Shown here: positions 17,235 to 39,012 of the stretch, piece after piece
Numbering within the stretch: position 1 is the stretch's first letter
Layout of the letters: the number at the start of each line of letters is the position of its first letter
NCBI RefSeq assembly: GCF_018141545.1
Contig: NZ_CP064356.1
Span: 930,001-994,000 of the forward strand
Direction of reading: 5' to 3'
Source of the DNA: Miltoncostaea oceani
GTDB lineage: Bacteria > Actinomycetota > Thermoleophilia > Miltoncostaeales > Miltoncostaeaceae
Length of the DNA: 64,000 bases
Translations under genes and position numbers: made by a program
The notes under the pieces: model-generated
The model's database searches: none
What the model was told of the DNA's origin: nothing
What the model saw: the letters and a program-made list of their open reading frames with translations, nothing else

Positions 17235-18466
17235 TCAGGCCGCCCGCACGACCCGCAACCCCGCGCCGCGGGGCCGGGTCGCGGACGACGCGTCGATGCG
17301 GGCGCCGGTGCGGTCGGCGCCCGTCAGGTCGCATCCGCCGAGCGCGGCGCCAGTGAGGTCGGCGTCGCGCAGCACGGCGGCCAGCAGGCGGGCCCCCGTC
17401 AGCGAGGCGCCGGTCGCGACGGCGCCCGTCAGGTCGGCGCCCGCGAGGGTCGCGCCGTCGAGCCGGGCCCCGGCGAGGTCGGCGCCGGCGAGCAGGGCAC
17501 GGGTGAGGTCGGCGCCGCGCAGGTCGGCCCCGCGCAGGTCGAAGCCGGTGAGGTCGGCGGCCCGCAGGTCGGCGCCGTGCAGGCCGGGGGCCCGGCCGAG
17601 GCTCGCCGGGCCGTGCGTGCGGCCGCGGTTGAATCCGCCGAGCAGGGCGTCCCGCAGGCGCGCGCCGGTGAGGTCGTCGAACCGGGCCGAGCGCAGGTCG
17701 GCGCGGGCGAGGACGGCGTCGGTGACGTCGGCGCCGGTGAGGTCGGCACCGGCGAGGTCCGCCCCGTCGAGGGTGCACGCGGTGAGGTCTGCGCCGCGCA
17801 GCACCGCCCGGGCGAGCAGCGCCCCCGTGAGCCGGGCCCGGAACAGGGACGCCCCGGTGAGGTCGGTGCCCCGCAGGTCGGCGCCGGCCAGGTCGGCCCC
17901 GGACAGGTCCGCCCCCGCGAGCGCGAACCCGGCGAGGTCGGCGCCGGGCAACATCGCGCCGTCCATGCGGTGCGCCCCCGCAGGCGCGGCGACGGGGCTG
18001 CCGCCGTCGCTCCCCCAGTCGGTGCTGGCGAGCGCGGCGCCGCACATGTCGGCGCCCTCCAGGACGGCGCCCGCGAGGCACGCGCCGGTGAGGTCCGTGT
18101 CGCGCAGGCTCGCCCCGGTGAGGTCGGCGTGGGCGAGACGGGCGTCGCGCACCGTCGCCCCGTCGAGGCGCGCCCCGCCGAGCGCGGCCCGCGACAGGTC
18201 GGCGCCGTCGAGCGCCGCGCCGCGGAGGTCCGCGCCGGTGAGCACGGCGCGCTCCAGCGTGGCCCCCCGCAGGTCGGCGCCCCGCAGGTCGCGGTCGCGC
18301 AGGTCGGCGCGCGACAGGTCGACGCCCGCCAGGTCGCCCGCCGGAGCGCGAGCCCCGGCCCGGCGCGTCGCCCGCCGCGCGCGCCGGCCAGCCAGCGTTC
18401 GTGGGCGCGGAGGCCCCGGGTGAGGTCGGTTGCGGCGGCGGGACGTGCGGGGCGGCGTGCGTGCAT
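17235..18466 (-). pseudogene. Pentapeptide-repeat protein gene with apparent single-base frameshift
   Basis: From about 18350 down to 17235 the frame encodes an almost unbroken series of A(D/N)LxG-type pentapeptides, a right-handed beta-helix in which roughly 50 repeats are recognisable. The natural N-terminus lies in a different frame: an ATG at 18466, with GGAGG upstream, encodes LTRGLRAHERWLAGARGGRR, the standard opening of this family. The two frames would join if one G were added to the CCGGGG run near 18352-18357. Either the gene is broken or the run was miscalled. The apparent 461-residue frame from 18620 has an arginine-rich, non-protein-like start. Function unknown; some pentapeptide proteins mimic DNA and bind gyrase. 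Confidence 0.75.
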
Positions 18467-20695: not shown

Positions 20696-21499
20696 ATGCC
20701 CGGTGCTCCCGTGACGGTCGGATCCGTCATGTCATGGACGGCGGACGGACCGGGCAGCGCCCTGCTGCTCCTGCGCGTCGGCGAGGCCGCCGACCAGCAG
20801 ACCATCGCCGACGAGGAGCTCGAGGTGACGGGCGCCGACGTCGAGCGCGGGCCGACGACGCCCCTCGGCGTGCGCCCCCTGCGCCTCCACGCCCCCGGTG
20901 GACCGGTGACGGTGCGGTACTCCACCCAGGTGCGCGTCGACGGCGACGACCGCGCCTGCCCGAGGGACGACGTCGCCCTGCCCGAGCGGGGGCACCTGCC
21001 GTTCGACCTGATCGACTGGACCCTGCCGAGCCGGTACTGCCCCTCCGACGCCCTCGGGCCGACGACGGAGGCGCTCTTCGGCGGGCTGCCGCGCACCCGT
21101 GCGCTCATCCCGGCCGTCGCCGACTGGGTGCGGGACAACATCGCGTACACGTCGGGTGCGAGCGACGGCCTCACCGCCGCCGACGAGACCCTCCTCGCGC
21201 GGGCGGGCGTCTGCCGCGACATGGCCCACCTCGCGGTGACGTTCCTGCGGGCCCTGGAGGTGCCGGCGCGGGTGGTCGCCGCCTACGCGCCGCTGCTCGA
21301 GCCGCCCGACTTCCACGCCCTGCTCGAGGCCCACGACGGCACCGCCTGGCGGCTCCTCGACGTCACCGGCCTCGCGCCGGTGCCGACGATGGTGCGCATC
21401 GCGACCGGCCGTGACGCCGCGGACGTGGCGTGGGCGACGTCCAGCGGCGGGCTCGCCCTGGACGCCGTCGCGGTCACCGCGTTCGGGCCCGCCGGGTAG
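20696..21499 (+). CDS. Transglutaminase-like cysteine protease-fold protein
   Basis: 267 residues. A beta-rich N-terminal region (1-130) precedes a transglutaminase core with the catalytic triad Cys173 (GVCRDMAHL), His207 (DFHALLEA) and Asp222 (LLDVTGL). Bacterial members are usually peptidases or amidases rather than cross-linkers. GGAGGT lies eight bases before the ATG. Confidence 0.88.
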   Translation: MPGAPVTVGSVMSWTADGPGSALLLLRVGEAADQQTIADEELEVTGADVERGPTTPLGVRPLRLHAPGGPVTVRYSTQVRVDGDDRACPRDDVALPERGHLPFDLIDWTLPSRYCPSDALGPTTEALFGGLPRTRALIPAVADWVRDNIAYTSGASDGLTAADETLLARAGVCRDMAHLAVTFLRALEVPARVVAAYAPLLEPPDFHALLEAHDGTAWRLLDVTGLAPVPTMVRIATGRDAADVAWATSSGGLALDAVAVTAFGPAG

Positions 21500-21526
21500 G
21501 CCGGCGGGCCCGGGGACGCGGACGGC

Positions 21527-22387
21527 TCAGCCGCGGGTGCGGTAGAGCCGGGTCGTGAGCGGGGCGAAGATGGCGGCGAGCACCGCCGCCTCGATCAGCA
21601 CCAGGCCGATGTCGCCACCGGACGCGGTGCCGTCCATCAGGCCCCGGACGGCCGTCACGACGTGGGAGATCGGGTTGATCTCCACGATCGTCTCGAGCCA
21701 GTCCGGCAGCGTCTCCTGCGGCACGAAGCCGTTGCTGATGAAGATCAGCGGGAACAGCGCCATGAAGCCCGTGTTCATGACGGCGTTCGGCGCCCGCATC
21801 AGCAGCCCCACCGTCGTGAACACCCACGACAGGGCGACCGAGAAGACGATCAGGAGGAGGAGGGCGACGACCATGCCGCCCCACGACTCCGGCCGGTAGC
21901 CGAGCGCGAGCCCGACGGCGATCACGACGAGGCCCGCGAGCAGGTAGCGCAGGACGTCGCCGAGCACCGCGCCGACCAGCGGGGCGGGCCGCCACGTCGG
22001 CAGCGAGCGGAAGCGGTCGACGACCCCCTTCGTCATGTCCGTGTTGAGGGACACCCCGGAGTAGACCGTCGTGAACAGCACCGACATGACGAGCGTGCCC
22101 GGCAGCAGGAACTGCAGGTACTCGTCGGTCGATCCGGAGATCGCCCCGCCGTACATGTACGTGAAGAGCAGGGTGAACAGGACCGGCGTCAGGGTGACGT
22201 CGATCAGCTGCTCGGGGACGTGCTTGATCTTCAGCATCCCGCGCCAGCCGAACGTGAGGACCGCCGACAGGGGGCTCGCGCCCGACGCCGGGGGGTTCGA
22301 CGCGAGGGCGGTGCGGATGGCGGCGTCCTCGACGGCGGGGGCCGCCGCGGACGCGGGGGGTGCGGATGCCGCCGGTGCGTCGCTCAT
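21527..22387 (-). CDS. ABC-2 type exporter permease (DrrB-like)
   Basis: 286 residues. A disordered Ala/Pro-rich N-terminus of about 40 residues is followed by six transmembrane helices and the ABC-2 signature region around [26 protein letters not shown]. It forms an exporter with the ATPase encoded just upstream, overlapped ATGA. This type (daunorubicin-resistance DrrAB) pumps drugs or lipids. Confidence 0.92.
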
Positions 22388-23373
22388 GCCGCGACCTCCT
22401 CTCGGGTGGCGTCGTCGCCGGCGGGGCCGTCGGCGTGGTGGCCGGTCAGCGCCAGGAAGACCTCGTCGAGGCTCGGCTGCCCCATCGAGAAGTCGGCGAT
22501 CCCGATCCCCTCCTGCGACATGCGGGCGAGCACGCCCGCCGCGCGGTCGGCGTCGGAGCACGGCGCCGACAGCGCCGAGGGGTCGGACTCGCGGTGGGCC
22601 TCGCCGAGCGAGGCGGCGAGGAGCCCCTCCGCCCGGTCGCGGTCGTCGGGGTCGAGCAGCCGCACGTGCAGCGTCCCGCCGCCGACGGACGACTTGAGCC
22701 GCGCCGGCGTCCCCTCCGCGATGACGCGGCCGCGGTCGATCACCGCGATGCGGTCGGCGAGCTGGTCGGCCTCGTCGAGGTACTGGGTGCAGAGCAGGAT
22801 GGTGGTGCCCTCGGCGGACAGGGCGCGGACGATGTCCCACACCTGGTTGCGCGACCGCGGGTCGAGGCCCGTCGTCGGCTCGTCGAGGAACATCAGGCGG
22901 GGTGTCACGACGATGCTCGCCGCGATGTCCAGCCGGCGGCGCATGCCGCCCGAGTAGGTCTTCACGAGGCGGCCGCCGGCCTCCTCGATGCCGAACGCGC
23001 CGAGCAGCTCGTCGGCGCGGGCCTTCGCGTGGGCCCGCGAGTGGCCGAGCAGGCGCGCGATCATCACCAGGTTCTCCCGCCCGGTGAGGTCCTCGTCGAC
23101 GGACGCGAGCTGCCCGGTCAGGCTGACCTGGGCGCGGACCGCGCCGGCGTCGGTGACGATGTCGTGGCCCAGCACGCGCGCGGTGCCCGCGTCGGGGCGC
23201 AGCAACGTCGCGAGCATGCGGATGGTTGTCGTCTTGCCGGCCCCGTTGGGACCCAGCACGCCGTAGACGGCGCCGCTGCGGACCTCGAGGTCGACCCCGT
23301 CGACGGCGCGGGTGGAGCCGAACGACTTGCCGAGGCCGGTGGCCTCGATCGCGAGGGTGTCTGTGGTCGTCAC
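22384..23373 (-). CDS. ABC exporter ATP-binding protein (DrrA-like)
   Basis: 329 residues from the GTG at 23373, chosen because AGGAG lies five bases upstream; the longer frame from 23463 is not protein-like. Walker A GPNGAGKT, signature YSGGMRRRL and Walker [13 protein letters not shown] are present. The C-terminal extension of about 90 residues, including [16 protein letters not shown], marks the DrrA subfamily. Confidence 0.94.
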
Positions 23374-23518
23374 CTCGCTCCTCTCCTCTGTGAACGTGGT
23401 CGGTGAACGATACGACTGCCACCGGGCGTCGAACTCATCGCCGGTGGGTCGTGGCCGCGGCACCGCCCATGCCGGGGGAGGGTGGGGGGTGTCCCCCGGG
23501 TTGTGCCCTGCGGCCTCG

Positions 23519-23806
23519 TTACCCGTCGAGCCCGAGCAGGTAGCGGGCGCTCTCGAGCCGGGCCGGGTCGTCGGCCCACGTGTGGCCGAGGCGGCCGGTG
23601 AGCTCGGCGACGAGCGCGTCCACCAGGTCGGCCGTCATGGCCTCGAGCCGCTGGAGGTCGCCGGCGGAGCGTCCCTCCCAGCGGGACCCCGCCCGGGTCA
23701 GCTCGGCGCGCCGGATGTCCTCCGCCCGCGCGCGAAACGCGGTGACCACCGCGTCGGTCGTGGGCCGCGGCGTGGTCTGCGGCCCCGCGTCGAAACCGAT
23801 CGTCAT
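23519..23806 (-). CDS. Stand-alone glutamyl-tRNA reductase dimerisation-domain-like protein
   Basis: 95 residues from the ATG at 23806, with GGGAGGTG upstream. The stretch [17 protein letters not shown], then [19 protein letters not shown] and finally the [15 protein letters not shown] tail follows the C-terminal spinal/dimerisation domain of HemA in order and spacing. The catalytic and NADPH-binding domains of HemA are absent and the gene is complete. It may be a derived regulatory or scaffold protein. No HemA gene is in the window. Confidence 0.75.
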
Positions 23807-23847
23807 GTCGTGACACCTCCCGCCGTGGGATGCCGGGAACGGGACCA

Positions 23848-23883
23848 CCCTCCCCCTCCTCCGTCACCGGAGGAGGGGGAGGG
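23848..23883 (-). terminator. 16-bp perfect hairpin downstream of the haem-c protein gene
   Basis: CCCTCCCCCTCCTCCG and CGGAGGAGGGGGAGGG pair without mismatch around TCAC. The hairpin lies eight bases past the stop of the gene ending at 23892. There is no T-run on either strand, so it is a factor-independent terminator only by its stem, or an mRNA 3' stabiliser. Confidence 0.65.
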
Positions 23884-23891
23884 CAGGTGGA

Positions 23892-25931
23892 TCACCGTGC
23901 CAGTGGCGTCGGCCGCATCTGCGCGTGGCCGAGCCAACCGTGCTGGACCTCGTTGTGGATGACGGGGTCCAGGCCGTCGTTGAACCAGAGACCGCGACCC
24001 TTCCAACCGGCCTTCGGGTCGTCGATCCGGCCGTCCAGGCCCCGCTGGTATGCGTTCAGCGGGTACGGCACCCGGAGGGTCGTCCACTTCTTCGTCTTCG
24101 GCTGGAAGATCTGGAGCGAGTCCGAGTTCGTCCCGTTGAGGATGACCACGTCCTTGCCCATGCCGAACGTGCCGTGCACGTCGACGAAGAGGTAGTAGTG
24201 GAGGTCGGCGGTCCGCTGGTCGGCGGGCGTCGACTGGGCCAGCAGGGGACCGGGCGGCTTGTAGAACGTCCAGCCCTGCGGGCACTGCTCCCCGTTGCCC
24301 CACGTCTGCGTGCACTTGGAGCGGTCGAAGCGGCCGAGGTGACCGGAGCCGCCCATGGCCGCCCAGATCATGCCCTTCGAGTCGACGTCCACGCCACGCG
24401 GGCCGGAGCCCGGGGGCGGCGGGATGTACGACTCGAACTTGCCGGTCGCCTTGTCGTAGCGGACCAGGAGCCCACGCGGGCCGGTGCTCGGCTGCGCGGT
24501 CCAGACGCTGTTGTCCACGTCGTTCGGGATGACGCCGTAGTTGAAGCCGACGACGGGCTTGTCGGCGACGCCGTCACCGTTGGTGTCGACCTTGACCTCG
24601 GCGTGGCCCTGGGCCTGCGCCTCGGTCTCGGGGCGCTTCGGGTCGTACTTGCTCGGGTCGAACCACCCGAGGACGTACGAGTCGCCGCTCGTCCAGAGCA
24701 CGCCCTTCTTGTCGAACTGGAGGTGGTGCGTGCCGTAGCAGGTGTCGATCAGCGACCACTTCTTCGCCTTCGGGTCGTAGTACCCGAGCTGGCGGTGGTG
24801 CGACCTGCCGGCGATGGCGGGGTCCGTCTTGCACTGCGCCGGGATGTCCTCCTGCCACTCACGACGGATCTGCGTCGTGACCCACACGTTGCCCTTCGCG
24901 TCCAGCATCGGGTTGTGGGGGTTCGCCGGGTTCTGGTACCGCCCGACGTAGGCGCTCACGCCACCGACCGCCGTGGCGGGGCAACCGAGGGTCTGGAAGC
25001 CGCCCGAGCCGGCGGGGCGTCCGGGACCGCTGGTCGCGTCGCACCAGGAGGTGTTGTAGCCGTTGCGCGTCGGGACCTTGATGGCCGTCGACTTGTTGGT
25101 CTTCGGGTCGACCCGCAGCAGGCGGTCGTTGCCGATGTCGACGCCCCAGACGGGGCCCTCGGCGTTGACGCGCGGGTTGCGCTTGTCGGTCGAGATCTCG
25201 TCGTGGGCGTAGGCCCACTTGTCGCCCCAGTTCCACTGGGTGATGACGATGTTGCGCTCGAGGCCCTTCGGACGCGCCGGGGCGCTCTTCGGGGTCTCGC
25301 CCTTCGCGATCCGCCCGCCCCAGTCGGCGAGCGAGTCGAGGAACGCCTCGCGGCCGAGGCCGAGGCTGGTCCCGTACATCGTGCCGGCCTTCTTGGTGCC
25401 GTGGTCGAAGGCGTCACGGGTGGGGAGCCGGGTCGACTTGATCCCGATCTGGTGGCAGAGCATGCACGAGAGCTTGAACTGCGATGCGTAGTCCGGGCTC
25501 GCGTTCGGGAGGTTCAGCATCGACAGCCAGTAGTTGGCCGGGTAGATCTTCGCGGCCTGCACCTTGGTGCGGGCCGGCTTCACCTTGAGCGAGAGGTCCG
25601 CGCCGAGCTTGGCGGCCGTCTTCCCGGAGTCGACGAGGCCGTAGCCGCGGACCCACACCTTCCAGGTGGCCTTCGGCAGCTCGGGCAGCACGAAGCGGCC
25701 GTTGCGGTCCGTGACCACGATCTTGCGCATGAGCGTGCCGGCCGGCTTCGACTCGGCGATCACCCACACACCGGCCTCGGGCTTCTTCGCGCCCGAGGTG
25801 ACCTGCCCCTCGATGTAGTCCACCGGCGGCCCCTTCGCGGCGACGGACTCGTCGGAGGTGGCGCTCAGCACGAGCGCGCCCCCCGCGAGGACCGAGGCCG
25901 TGGCGAGCAGCGAGACCCATCTCCGATCCAC
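23892..25931 (-). CDS. Secreted haem-c protein with Vgb-lyase-like beta-propeller
   Basis: 679 residues from the GTG at 25931, which follows GGAGGGGGTG and gives a clean signal peptide (MDRRWVSLLATASVLAGGAL). Residues 36-120 are a carboxypeptidase-regulatory-like beta-sandwich. CMLCH at 156-160 is a CxxCH haem-c attachment site. Residues 210-670 form a beta-propeller resembling streptogramin B lyase (blades with GNVWVTTQI, GVLWTSGDS, GMIWAAMGG). This domain order suggests an exported electron-transfer enzyme or a redox sensor, not a lyase. It is divergent from the multicopper oxidase and blue-copper genes; an electron path between them is inference. No haem-c maturation genes are in the window. 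Confidence 0.82.
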   Translation of the reverse strand: MDRRWVSLLATASVLAGGALVLSATSDESVAAKGPPVDYIEGQVTSGAKKPEAGVWVIAESKPAGTLMRKIVVTDRNGRFVLPELPKATWKVWVRGYGLVDSGKTAAKLGADLSLKVKPARTKVQAAKIYPANYWLSMLNLPNASPDYASQFKLSCMLCHQIGIKSTRLPTRDAFDHGTKKAGTMYGTSLGLGREAFLDSLADWGGRIAKGETPKSAPARPKGLERNIVITQWNWGDKWAYAHDEISTDKRNPRVNAEGPVWGVDIGNDRLLRVDPKTNKSTAIKVPTRNGYNTSWCDATSGPGRPAGSGGFQTLGCPATAVGGVSAYVGRYQNPANPHNPMLDAKGNVWVTTQIRREWQEDIPAQCKTDPAIAGRSHHRQLGYYDPKAKKWSLIDTCYGTHHLQFDKKGVLWTSGDSYVLGWFDPSKYDPKRPETEAQAQGHAEVKVDTNGDGVADKPVVGFNYGVIPNDVDNSVWTAQPSTGPRGLLVRYDKATGKFESYIPPPPGSGPRGVDVDSKGMIWAAMGGSGHLGRFDRSKCTQTWGNGEQCPQGWTFYKPPGPLLAQSTPADQRTADLHYYLFVDVHGTFGMGKDVVILNGTNSDSLQIFQPKTKKWTTLRVPYPLNAYQRGLDGRIDDPKAGWKGRGLWFNDGLDPVIHNEVQHGWLGHAQMRPTPLAR

Positions 25932-26168
25932 GTGCACCCCCTCCACTTGTCATCGTTGTCACGAACGGCGCGACGCTACCTCGGGGTGGCCACTTTTATG
26001 GACAGGAGGGGGGCATCCATCTGGGTTACCCGATCGAAAGCCCGCTTTCCACGCGGTCAACGGTCGGATGTGACGAATATTCTGGCCGCGCAGTTGACGG
26101 GGCCCGACGGCCTCCCGATGCTGGCGTCCGCACCGCGCGTGACATCCGCCACGAGTCCCAGGAGGCCC
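25932..26168. promoter_or_regulatory. Divergent promoter region of the haem-c and copper-oxidase genes
   Basis: This spacer is less GC-rich than its surroundings. On the plus strand TATTCT (26079-26084) is a convincing -10 box for the oxidase; a second candidate is TTGACG near 26095 with GATGCT 16 bases downstream. On the minus strand TAGCGT near 25975 is a candidate -10 box for the haem protein. I see no clear operator palindrome. Confidence 0.5.
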
Positions 26169-27116
26169 ATGCCGACGTCCATGTTCCGTGCCCGCCGCGT
26201 AAGTCTCGCCGCCCTCCTCGCGCCGCTCGCGTTCGCGGCGGTGGTGCTGCCGGGACGCGCCGAGGGCGCGACCCGCCAGTACTGGATCAAGGCGGTGAAC
26301 GTCCGCGTGGACGTGGCCCCGAACGGCCTCGACGCCCTCATGGGGCGTCAGGTCCCGCTCGACCAGCGCTTCCTCGACGCCGTCGTCTACCGGGCCTACA
26401 CCCGCGGCTGGCGCAAGCCGCTGCCGAACACCGCCCGCTCGGGCGACAACGACGGCATCCCCGGGCCGGTGATCGAGGCCCGGGTGGGCGACCGCCTGCT
26501 CGTGCACTTCAAGAACGAGGACCGCACGTTCCGGCAGAAGCACTCGATGCACTTCCACGCGTTCACCTACAAGCCGGCGAGCGACGGGGCGTTCATCCCG
26601 CAGATCACCGGCAAGGGCGGCAACGTCCCGGTGGGGCAGTCGTTCACGTACCGGCTGACCGCGGGGCCCCAGAGCCGCGGCGCGTGGCCGTACCACGACC
26701 ACTCGTCGACGATGCACGACAGCATCCCGCGTGGCCTCTACGGCGCCGTGGTGATCATGGGGAGGAAGGAGAAGCCGCCGGACCGCCGCTTCATCGTGGC
26801 GTTCAGCAGCCACAACGGCTTCGACACGATCAACGGCCGCGCGTTCATCGGCAACACGCCGACGTTCCGCGCGAAGGTCGGCGAGACCGTGGAATGGAAC
26901 GTGCTGGCGATGGGCGACACGTTCCACACGTTCCACGTCCATGGGCACCGCTGGCTGAACGACGCCGGCACCCCGAAGGACACGGAGGAGATCGGACCCG
27001 GTGGCTCGTTCCGGATCCGCTGGAAGGAGGACGCGCCGGGCACGTGGTTCTACCACTGCCACGTCGAGTCCCATCAGATGAACGGAATGATCGGACTCTT
27101 CAAGGTGACGAAATGA
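26169..27116 (+). CDS. Secreted two-domain multicopper oxidase
   Basis: 315 residues with a signal peptide (basic FRARR, then a hydrophobic stretch ending near Ala34). All four copper motifs are present: H128-x-H130, H176-x-H178 (PYHDHSS), H253-TF-H256-V-H258, and HCH (296-298) with His302 and axial Met307. The type 1 site is therefore in domain 2 and the trinuclear site lies between domains, which usually requires a trimer. Two-domain enzymes of this kind oxidise phenols, metals or other donors with O2. AGGAGG lies three bases before this ATG and fifteen before a second in-frame ATG at 26181. Overlaps the next gene as ATGA. Confidence 0.9.
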   Translation: MPTSMFRARRVSLAALLAPLAFAAVVLPGRAEGATRQYWIKAVNVRVDVAPNGLDALMGRQVPLDQRFLDAVVYRAYTRGWRKPLPNTARSGDNDGIPGPVIEARVGDRLLVHFKNEDRTFRQKHSMHFHAFTYKPASDGAFIPQITGKGGNVPVGQSFTYRLTAGPQSRGAWPYHDHSSTMHDSIPRGLYGAVVIMGRKEKPPDRRFIVAFSSHNGFDTINGRAFIGNTPTFRAKVGETVEWNVLAMGDTFHTFHVHGHRWLNDAGTPKDTEEIGPGGSFRIRWKEDAPGTWFYHCHVESHQMNGMIGLFKVTK

Positions 27117-27985
27117 CGAAGCGCATCGTGGTCCTGACGGCGATCTCCTCGGCGGCGCTGCTCGCCGGGGCCGCCCCGATACTCGGGCAGATGACCCACC
27201 CCGGTGGGGGGGCGATGGCGCCGGGCGCGACCGCCGTCACCATCAACGACGCGGGGTACAGCCCCGGTGAGACGGTCGTCGCGCCGGGGCAGTCGGTGAC
27301 GTGGACGAACTCGGGGAGCAACCCCCACACGGTCACCTCGGACGTGCCGGGGATCTTCGACTCGGGGACGCTCGGCGCGAAGGCGAAGTTCGTGCTGACG
27401 GCGCCGGCCGCGGCGGGGACGTACACGTACAACTGCACGTTCCACGCCTACATGCGCGGCAGCCTGGTCGTCTCGACGGTCACGTTGATGGGCCCGAAGC
27501 AGGTGCGGGCGGGGAAGACGGCGTCGGTGCACGGCGCCGCCCCGGGGACGCCGCCCGGCACGGCGGTCGCGATCGAGGCGCTCGGCGCGGGCGGGGCCTG
27601 GACGGCCGTGGCGAGCGGGACGGTCGCGGCGGACGGGTCGTACCACGTGGTCACCCGGCCCCTGACGGCCGGCGCGACCCTGCGCGCCCGGGTCGGTGAG
27701 GGCCTCAGCCCGACGCTGACGATCCCGGTGGCCCCGAAGGTGGTCATCAAGCGCTCCGGCAAGCGGGGGATCGCGGTGACCGTGACGCCCGCGAAGGCGG
27801 CGAAGGGCAACCTCGAGCGGTTGAACACGGACACGTTCCGCTGGGTGAAGGCGAAGAAGGTCACCATCAACCGCCGCGGGAAGGCGACCGTCACGGTCCC
27901 GAAGGCCGCCGGGAGGTACCGCGTCACGCTGCTGCCGGCGAAGGGCCTGGCGGCGGCCAGCTCGGCGGGGTTGTCGTTCCGGTAG
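27113..27985 (+). CDS. Secreted blue-copper (cupredoxin) protein with beta-sandwich tail
   Basis: 290 residues. The signal peptide is followed by a plastocyanin-like domain (about 38-122) with type 1 copper ligands His72 (NPHTV), Cys108, His111 and Met114 (NCTFHAYM). Residues 125-290 are an Ig-like or surface-binding beta domain rich in Lys and Ala. Probably a soluble electron carrier for the coupled multicopper oxidase. It is translationally overlapped with the oxidase gene, which strongly implies joint function. Confidence 0.9.
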   Translation: MTKRIVVLTAISSAALLAGAAPILGQMTHPGGGAMAPGATAVTINDAGYSPGETVVAPGQSVTWTNSGSNPHTVTSDVPGIFDSGTLGAKAKFVLTAPAAAGTYTYNCTFHAYMRGSLVVSTVTLMGPKQVRAGKTASVHGAAPGTPPGTAVAIEALGAGGAWTAVASGTVAADGSYHVVTRPLTAGATLRARVGEGLSPTLTIPVAPKVVIKRSGKRGIAVTVTPAKAAKGNLERLNTDTFRWVKAKKVTINRRGKATVTVPKAAGRYRVTLLPAKGLAAASSAGLSFR

Positions 27986-28008
27986 GGCCCTCCACGCGGG
28001 CCCGGGCG

Positions 28009-28611
28009 TCAGGTGCGCCCGGGCCCCGCGGTGGGCGGGCTCGACACCCAGACGACGAGCGCATGCCCGTCGCCGGCGTTGCGCACCTCGGTGACGGGCT
28101 GCTCGCCGCAGTAGGCGGAGTCGCCGGCGCCGAGCCGCAGCGGCTCGTCCCCGCCGTCGAGGACCATCTCCACGGTGCCGCGGACGACGAACAGGAAGTG
28201 CTGGGTCCCGTCGGTGGTCGCGGGGCGGGGGATGCGGGCGCCGGGGGCGTACTCGTAGATCACGGGGGCCATGGCGAGGTCGTCGTGGCGGTCGGCGACG
28301 GGGTGGGCGCGCATGCCGTCCCGTGGTGGGCCGCCGTCCATCCGCTCCTCGGCGCGCAGGATCGTCGCCTCCCGCACGGCCCCGGTGTCGAGCAGCTCGT
28401 CGATGCCGACCCCGTAGAAGCGCGCGAGCCGGTAGAGGCGGCCGGTGCTGATGTCGCTCCGTCCGTTCTCGACGAGGGAGAGGAAGGAGGGGGAGAGGTC
28501 GGTGCCGGCGGAGACGTCGCCGAGCGAGTGCCCCCGTTCGGTGCGGAGGCCGCGGAGCGTCTCGCCGAGTGTCCGGAGGCAGAGCTCGGTGTCGCTGTCG
28601 GGCTGGGGCAG
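28009..28611 (-). CDS. XRE-family regulator with C-terminal cupin, apparent CTG start
   Basis: 200 residues: a helix-turn-helix (about 15-70, with LGDVSAGTDLSPSFLSLVENG) and a cupin sensor domain (about 115-190, PATTDGTQHFLFVVRGTVEM). Such regulators bind a small ligand through the cupin. No ATG, GTG or TTG exists in frame ahead of the helix-turn-helix. A CTG at 28611 with AGGAG five bases upstream is the only well-placed start; an ATG at 28633 is out of frame. It is convergent with the copper operon and divergent from the next gene. Confidence 0.8.
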   Translation of the reverse strand: MPQPDSDTELCLRTLGETLRGLRTERGHSLGDVSAGTDLSPSFLSLVENGRSDISTGRLYRLARFYGVGIDELLDTGAVREATILRAEERMDGGPPRDGMRAHPVADRHDDLAMAPVIYEYAPGARIPRPATTDGTQHFLFVVRGTVEMVLDGGDEPLRLGAGDSAYCGEQPVTEVRNAGDGHALVVWVSSPPTAGPGRT

Positions 28612-38593: not shown

Positions 38594-39012
38594 GGTCGCC
38601 GCCACGCCGCTTGGCCGGGTCCCCCTCCGAGCACGGATCATCTGCCCGGTCCCCGGCGCGACGCAAGCCCCCGGGCGGCCCGGGGCGCCGATCGGCGCAC
38701 CGTCCTCGAAGTGGACGAAGGCCTACGACGAACCGGTCATCGGCCCGAACGGCCTGAACCTGCACGGCGGCCATGACGCGGGCCGGGTGAGGCCTCGTCG
38801 TCGGCCTCGACGCCCGCACCGGCGCGACGAAGTGGACGCTCAACACCCTCGTGACCGCGGCGAGCTACCCGGCCGAGCCCGGCCAGGTGCCGCAGATCGT
38901 CGCGTACCGCCTGAAGGACTCGGCGGGGTCAGGCGTGCCGTCCGGGCGGGATCGCCGCCCGGACGGCACGGCACCGCCACGAACCGGCGCGTCGGGCGGC
39001 ATCATTGCGGCG
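38594..39012. pseudogene. Gap with a possible decayed PQQ-like repeat fragment
   Basis: Plus-strand pieces in two frames, SSKWTKAYDEPVIGPNGLNL and then LVVGLDARTGATKWTLNT with a further VPQIVAYRLKDSAG, look like the blades of a PQQ-type beta-propeller in which the frame is lost near 38790. No start codon, signal peptide or ribosome binding site remains. The similarity is weak; the alternative is chance. Confidence 0.35.
38935..38969. terminator. 15-bp perfect hairpin
   Basis: GTGCCGTCCGGGCGG and CCGCCCGGACGGCAC pair perfectly around GATCG. The hairpin stands 44 bases before the acetyltransferase ATG, so it would terminate readthrough from upstream. No T-run follows. Confidence 0.6.

What the first reader, a model, noticed from the sequence alone, without database searches (positions are those of the whole stretch)
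23519..23806. A free-standing glutamyl-tRNA reductase dimerisation domain
The 95-residue protein follows the HemA C-terminal domain from its first helix to the final [15 protein letters not shown], with no catalytic or NADPH domain. The gene has its own ribosome binding site and start. It lies just downstream of a haem-c protein gene. It could titrate or regulate HemA, or be a recycled coiled-coil.
Basis: partly seen in the sequence, partly recalled or inferred. Interest (0 to 1): 0.7.

Follow-up and report, generated by a model that had tools for sequence, protein, structure and literature searches.

The report
Free-standing HemA dimerisation domain gene
A small bacterial gene encodes only the pairing domain of the first haem-synthesis enzyme, and in five related genomes it sits right behind the same haem-protein gene, suggesting that it adjusts haem supply to a particular haem protein; this function is not yet tested.

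Summary
The minus-strand gene 23806-23519 encodes 95 residues matching only GlutR_dimer (PF00745, 33.4 bits against a cut-off of 22.9). The model's best structural matches are Arabidopsis GluTR chains, first the isolated dimerisation domain 4yvq_A (Z 8.7). Catalytic, NADPH and spinal-helix parts are absent; a complete hemA lies elsewhere in the genome.

The gene is not a one-off. All four genomes of the genus and one of a second genus carry it 81-102 nt downstream of the same CxxCH beta-propeller haem-c gene. The four genus copies share a GGAGGTG ribosome-binding site. Another haem-c locus in the family (G006) lacks it. One genome holds a second copy between a ccmD-like gene and ccmE, behind a paralogous haem-c gene. 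Substitutions concentrate at third codon positions, which points to selection.

HemA's NKxLH residues are lost in all six copies, while the AE..R core is kept. No other free-standing copy was seen among the matches listed from samples of the class (299 genomes) and phylum (138).

Best reading: a HemA-derived, microprotein-like partner coupling HemA activity or stability to cytochrome c production. HemA binding is inferred, not shown. Rivals are a domain with a new partner, or a slowly decaying leftover.

The parts
23519..23806 (-). Gene for the free-standing GlutR_dimer protein (95 aa, P0002)
   Evidence: Pfam PF00745 33.4 bits; AF2 model best matched by GluTR chains, first 4yvq_A, Z 8.7; orthologues in five loci
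23812..23818 (-). Ribosome-binding site, GGAGGTG upstream of the ATG
   Evidence: Sequence; the same heptamer stands at about this distance in G001, G002 and G003
23848..23883 (-). GC-rich perfect hairpin (16-nt arms, 4-nt loop, no T run) between the haem-c gene and the dimerisation-domain gene; probably the haem-c 3' end signal
   Evidence: the repeat finder; folding z -4.8; hairpins at the same place in the four other copies folded; similar hairpins at other gene ends of the window
23892..25946 (-). Haem-c protein: CarboxypepD_reg-like N-terminus, one CxxCH, virginiamycin-B-lyase-like beta-propeller; conserved upstream partner
   Evidence: Pfam; alignment A2 with CMLCH invariant; AF2 model and Foldseek
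26169..27116 (+). Two-domain multicopper oxidase, divergent neighbour conserved in the same island
   Evidence: Pfam Cu-oxidase_2/_3; present next to haem-c in G003, G002, G009 and G006
27113..27985 (+). Cupredoxin, conserved neighbour
   Evidence: Pfam Cupredoxin_1; tblastn

Best explanation
The gene encodes a HemA-derived single-domain protein that works like a microprotein. It came from the C-terminal dimerisation domain of a duplicated glutamyl-tRNA reductase and became fixed behind a haem-c gene in an ancestor of two genera. Shown: the homology, the absence of the catalytic, NADPH and spinal-helix parts, the conserved position behind the haem-c gene, the ribosome-binding site, and substitution patterns that fit purifying selection. 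Inferred: the small protein is made together with the haem-c protein, at a lower level because a terminator-like hairpin lies between the genes. It then contacts the native HemA through the same dimerisation surface, forming mixed dimers or a cap on the HemA stem. This changes HemA activity or stability, so that the first committed step of haem synthesis is adjusted when this cytochrome is produced. The sign (titration or protection) cannot be told from sequence; titration by mixed dimers is the simpler guess.
For: PF00745 over the cut-off in all six free-standing copies. AF2 model (pLDDT 82) has three helices; its best matches are GluTR chains 4yvq_A (Z 8.7), 5che_B (8.3, rmsd 8.7) and 5yjl_B (7.1), the next chain having Z 5.9. 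Gene pair with the haem-c gene in 4/4 genomes of the genus and in G009 of another genus. G003 second copy: haem-c2, ccmD-like, domain, ccmE with overlapping starts and stops. A separate complete HemA is present in G000, G001, G003 and G009. Third codon positions change most, 0.437 against 0.309 and 0.308, opposite to a GC-biased neutral simulation. Precedent: the isolated GluTR dimerisation domain folds and is bound by the repressor FLU (PMC4726326), and bacterial HemA is controlled after transcription by HemX, annotated as a cytochrome c assembly family protein (PMC5801465).
Against: No interaction data and no complex model. The HemA-conserved N63, K64 and H67 (P0002 numbering) are lost in 6/6 copies, so the surface may have changed. 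Divergence is fast (37-73% identity between copies; NG86 dN/dS 0.44-0.90 against 0.29-0.41 for the neighbour). G006 has the haem-c gene without the domain, so the haem-c protein does not need it everywhere.
Confidence: 0.42

Rival explanations
1. Recycled domain with a new partner. The free-standing protein keeps the helical fold and dimerises with itself, but no longer binds HemA; it serves the haem-c protein, its expression or the Ccm machinery.
For: Loss of the HemA-invariant N, K and H in all copies while core positions (A28, E29, R32, T58, L90, L93) are kept. Conserved linkage to the haem-c gene, and in G003 to ccmD and ccmE, rather than to hem genes.
Against: No signal peptide or membrane helix is apparent in the sequence, so direct contact with the exported haem protein is unlikely. 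The motif AE..R..EL is shared with HemA, so self-type pairing surfaces may persist.
Confidence: 0.3
2. Decaying leftover. A duplication of the ccmD-cysG-hemA segment was followed by deletion, leaving a hemA 3' end that is still open by chance in GC-rich DNA.
For: The native order is ccmA-ccmB-ccmC-ccmD-cysG-hemA, and the G003 cassette has a ccmD-like gene directly before the domain, as an internal deletion would leave. Rapid divergence.
Against: Copies in two genera form one supported clade (97/93). They keep frame, ribosome-binding site, codon-position GC (0.77, 0.58, 0.97 in the window copy) and an excess of third-position changes. Neutral simulation predicts the opposite ranking of codon positions.
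Confidence: 0.17
3. HemA recruiter or stabiliser. The domain pairs with HemA and positions or protects it at the haem export and cytochrome assembly site, raising local haem supply instead of titrating the enzyme.
For: CcmD and CcmE neighbours in G003; native hemA is itself in the ccm cluster; plant GBP is a precedent for a HemA-binding activator or protector (PMC4726326).
Against: No membrane segment is apparent in the protein; the Ccm linkage of the domain is seen in only one of six loci.
Confidence: 0.1

Closest known systems
Glutamyl-tRNA reductase (HemA/GluTR) C-terminal dimerisation domain, Pfam PF00745 (structures 4yvq, 5che, 5yjl; 1GPJ)
   Same: Sequence profile, three-helix arrangement, AE..R..EL motif and C-terminal L-F-x-L
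   Different: No catalytic or NADPH domain, no spinal helix, NKxLH residues lost, separate gene behind a haem-c gene
MicroProteins (plant and animal single-domain regulators derived from larger proteins; PMC5381583, PMC6003976)
   Same: One protein-interaction domain derived from a larger multidomain homodimeric protein that is still encoded in the same genome
   Different: Bacterial, the relative is an enzyme rather than a developmental regulator, and binding to the parent is untested
FLU and GBP, plant regulators that bind GluTR (PMC4726326)
   Same: Would act after translation on HemA; FLU acts at the dimerisation domain
   Different: FLU is a membrane-bound TPR protein and GBP a different fold; neither derives from GluTR
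HemX (Bacillus, Staphylococcus; PMC5801465)
   Same: A bacterial modulator of HemA abundance, in a family tied to cytochrome c assembly
   Different: Integral membrane protein of PF01578, usually encoded next to hemA

Membership tests
GlutR_dimer domain (PF00745) | Profile match over the curated cut-off | tested here: met
   33.4 bits against 22.9; the other five copies 41.9-51.7 bits
GlutR_dimer domain (PF00745) | Fold of the GluTR dimerisation domain | tested here: met
   AF2 model, two-row alignment, pLDDT 82; best match 4yvq_A, TM 0.62/0.69, Foldseek probability 0.98, E 0.43; VIA Z 8.7, next unrelated chain 5.9. The Z is modest for a helical bundle, so the sequence profile carries most weight
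GlutR_dimer domain (PF00745) | HemA-invariant NKxLH segment | tested here: not met
   N, K and H kept in 0/6 copies, present in 90-100% of 40 HemA domains
Glutamyl-tRNA reductase (HemA enzyme) | Catalytic and NADPH-binding domains | tested here: not met
   95 residues, only PF00745 found; NCBIfam HemA models far below cut-off, 18 bits against 429 and 10.7 against 209.55
MicroProtein (works-like class) | Single domain derived from a larger protein that the genome also encodes | tested here: met
   complete HemA P0012 in the same genome
MicroProtein (works-like class) | Binds the parent protein and alters its complexes | not testable with these tools
   No complex prediction or binding data available

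The most novel reading that the evidence does not exclude
A bacterial microprotein made of the HemA dimerisation domain alone forms heterodimers with glutamyl-tRNA reductase and couples the first committed step of haem synthesis to production of one particular c-type cytochrome.
Probability: 0.33. Interest if true: 0.75.

Novelty: new variant of a known kind. Interest (0 to 1): 0.52.

Why it matters
Bacteria must match haem supply to cytochrome demand, and control of HemA after translation is known only through proteolysis, haem binding and HemX, whose mechanism is undefined (PMC5801465). A HemA dimerisation domain kept as a separate gene behind a cytochrome gene would give a simple physical coupling between the two, and one of the first microprotein-type regulators of a bacterial enzyme. 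The prediction is directly testable with two purified proteins. If HemA is not the partner, the case still shows an enzyme dimerisation domain recycled into an independent small protein and kept for the age of at least two genera.

Tried and rejected
(1) Plus-strand reading of the given coordinates: a Pro/Arg/Gly-rich frame without relevance. (2) Frameshifted or truncated complete hemA at this place: rejected, because upstream is a terminator-like hairpin and the haem-c gene, and hemA is intact elsewhere. (3) Direct genome-contig search with the 95-aa protein: none of the 592 pattern matches was confirmed; the genome search and the haem-c query solved this. (4) Viral contigs: no relative. (5) General linkage to this haem-c family: more than 560 relatives were matched, mostly from Gammaproteobacteria and Acidobacteria; among the 79 loci held, only L072 (Thermoleophilia) has the domain. 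(6) The hairpin as a property of the small gene: a GC-rich inverted repeat also follows haem-c in G006, which lacks the gene, and similar hairpins stand at other gene ends of the window, so it is read as the haem-c 3' end. (8) A survey of Pseudomonadota for free-standing domains was not possible: the 'of' option takes only G handles. (9) Single origin of all six copies: five form a supported clade, the G003 cassette copy is unresolved (29/0). (10) The papers found include no report of a free-standing GlutR_dimer protein; coverage of subscription journals is poor. (11) No sigma-70-like promoter was found by consensus scan in 23300-26300, which says little for this phylum.

Full report
What is there. 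The reported coordinates hold a gene on the minus strand: ATG at 23806, stop at 23519, 95 codons. Against Pfam the protein matches one family only, GlutR_dimer (PF00745), with 33.4 bits against a curated cut-off of 22.9, residues 18-92 on profile positions 23-98 of 99. NCBIfam HemA models touch it far below their cut-offs. The catalytic and NADPH domains and the first 22 positions of the dimerisation profile (by knowledge of the family, the end of the spinal helix) are absent; in their place is a short Pro/Thr-rich tail. The same genome has one other PF00745 match, a complete 429-residue HemA about 0.6 Mb away.

Fold. A two-row AlphaFold2 model (the window protein and its relative in L072) reaches mean pLDDT 82 with helices 17-42, 48-77 and 81-90. 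The three best matches in the PDB are Arabidopsis GluTR: 4yvq_A, the isolated dimerisation domain crystallised with FLU (VIA Z 8.7, rmsd 2.9 over 82 residues; Foldseek TM 0.62/0.69, probability 0.98, E 0.43), then 5che_B (Z 8.3, rmsd 8.7) and 5yjl_B (Z 7.1); the next chain has Z 5.9. A profile of five free-standing copies finds the same structures by sequence (4yvq_A E 3.6e-4). Z near 8 is modest for a helical protein, so the sequence profile is the stronger evidence.

Is it a conserved gene? Yes. All four genomes held for the genus, and G009 of a second genus in the same family (the record of L072 names it Thermoleophilia bacterium SJ49), carry a free-standing domain. In all five it lies directly downstream of the orthologous haem-c gene (76-85% protein identity to the window protein), with gaps of 81-102 nt. 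The four genus copies have GGAGGTG just upstream of ATG. Each of the other copies passes the Pfam cut-off (41.9-51.7 bits). A further family member, G006, has the haem-c gene, multicopper oxidase and cupredoxin but no domain gene. In the whole order available (42 genomes) free-standing copies occur only in the two genera. In a phylum sample of 138 genomes at least 95% complete, the only PF00745 matches in short open frames are those of G000 and G003. In the class sample of 299 genomes the listed matches show no further clear case; the list was cut, and a few short frames there (such as G272) were not followed up.

Selection. Substitutions between copies concentrate at the third codon position (mean 0.437 against 0.309 and 0.308), and in the closest pair 0.218 against 0.077 and 0.103. 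A neutral simulation with GC bias predicts the reverse ranking. Codon-position GC (0.77, 0.58, 0.97 in the window copy) is that of a normal gene. NG86 dN/dS values are 0.44-0.90, higher than for the haem-c neighbour (0.29-0.41); saturation and GC bias make these rough. The protein thus evolves fast, with signs of constraint.

Second context and origin. G003 has a further cassette: a paralogous haem-c gene (55% identical), a 62-aa gene related to native CcmD (phmmer E 2e-9), a free-standing domain (P0007) whose GTG overlaps the preceding stop and whose TGA overlaps the next ATG, and ccmE (PF03100), which is 99% identical in DNA to the native ccmE. The native order in this genus is ccmA-ccmB-ccmC-ccmD-cysG-hemA-hemC (names of genes without a profile hit are assigned by order and sequence). 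A duplicate of the ccmD-hemA segment with an internal deletion would leave exactly ccmD followed by a HemA C-terminus; this is an inference. In the tree five copies form one supported clade (97/93), and the cassette copy is unresolved.

What changed. Of positions conserved in at least 85% of 40 HemA domains, A28, E29, R32, T58, L90 and L93 are kept in all six copies, whereas the N, K and H of NKxLH (63, 64, 67) are kept in none. The core is retained and one HemA-specific patch has been given up. Whether that patch lies at the dimer interface could not be examined here.

Surroundings. A 16-nt-arm GC hairpin without a T run separates the haem-c and domain genes. Hairpins stand at the same place in the other copies folded, a GC-rich inverted repeat also follows haem-c in G006 without the gene, and such hairpins stand at other gene ends of the window. 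It is best read as the haem-c 3' end, so that the small gene is reached by read-through or a promoter not seen here. The haem-c protein has a CarboxypepD_reg-like N-terminus, one CxxCH and a beta-propeller closest in fold to virginiamycin B lyase; distant relatives in other phyla lack the domain gene. A multicopper oxidase and a cupredoxin are divergent neighbours in the family.

How it most likely works. Shown: identity, conservation, linkage, signs of constraint. Inferred: the protein meets native HemA through the old dimerisation surface and adjusts its activity or stability when the cytochrome is made. Precedents are FLU binding to the GluTR dimerisation domain (PMC4726326), HemX control of HemA abundance (PMC5801465), and microproteins derived from larger proteins (PMC5381583, PMC6003976). 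The loss of NKxLH and the absence of any interaction data keep a new-partner reading close behind.

Verdict. This is a new variant of a known kind: a known domain turned into an independent gene, with a conserved context that makes a clear test possible.

Noticed in passing
L034 8435-8848 and L181 7669-8086: G003 carries two ccmE copies 99% identical in DNA; one sits behind the haem-c2/ccmD-like/free-standing-domain cassette, far from the native ccmE-ccmF locus.
   Followed up: partly
window 23892-25946: Haem-c protein with CarboxypepD_reg-like N-terminus, one CxxCH and a virginiamycin-B-lyase-like beta-propeller; more than 560 relatives were matched, mostly in Gammaproteobacteria and Acidobacteria, function apparently undescribed.
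   Followed up: partly
window 26169-27985: Two-domain multicopper oxidase and cupredoxin, divergent from the haem-c gene and kept with it in three genera of the family; looks like an extracytoplasmic oxidation module.
   Followed up: partly
window 21484-21512, 23848-23883, 27998-28026, 38934-38970: Strong GC hairpins without T runs in intergenic stretches, mostly at gene ends; possibly the terminator type of this organism.
   Followed up: partly
window 17235-18245: Long protein of A(D/N)LxGA-type pentapeptide repeats on the minus strand (by eye).
   Followed up: no
window 21527-23373: DrrA-like ABC exporter pair directly downstream of the domain gene on the same strand; this neighbour is not conserved in the relatives.
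   Followed up: no
G272:C227:4356-4589: PF00745-type match in an 82-residue open frame in another family of the class; could be a contig-end fragment of hemA or another free-standing domain.
   Followed up: no
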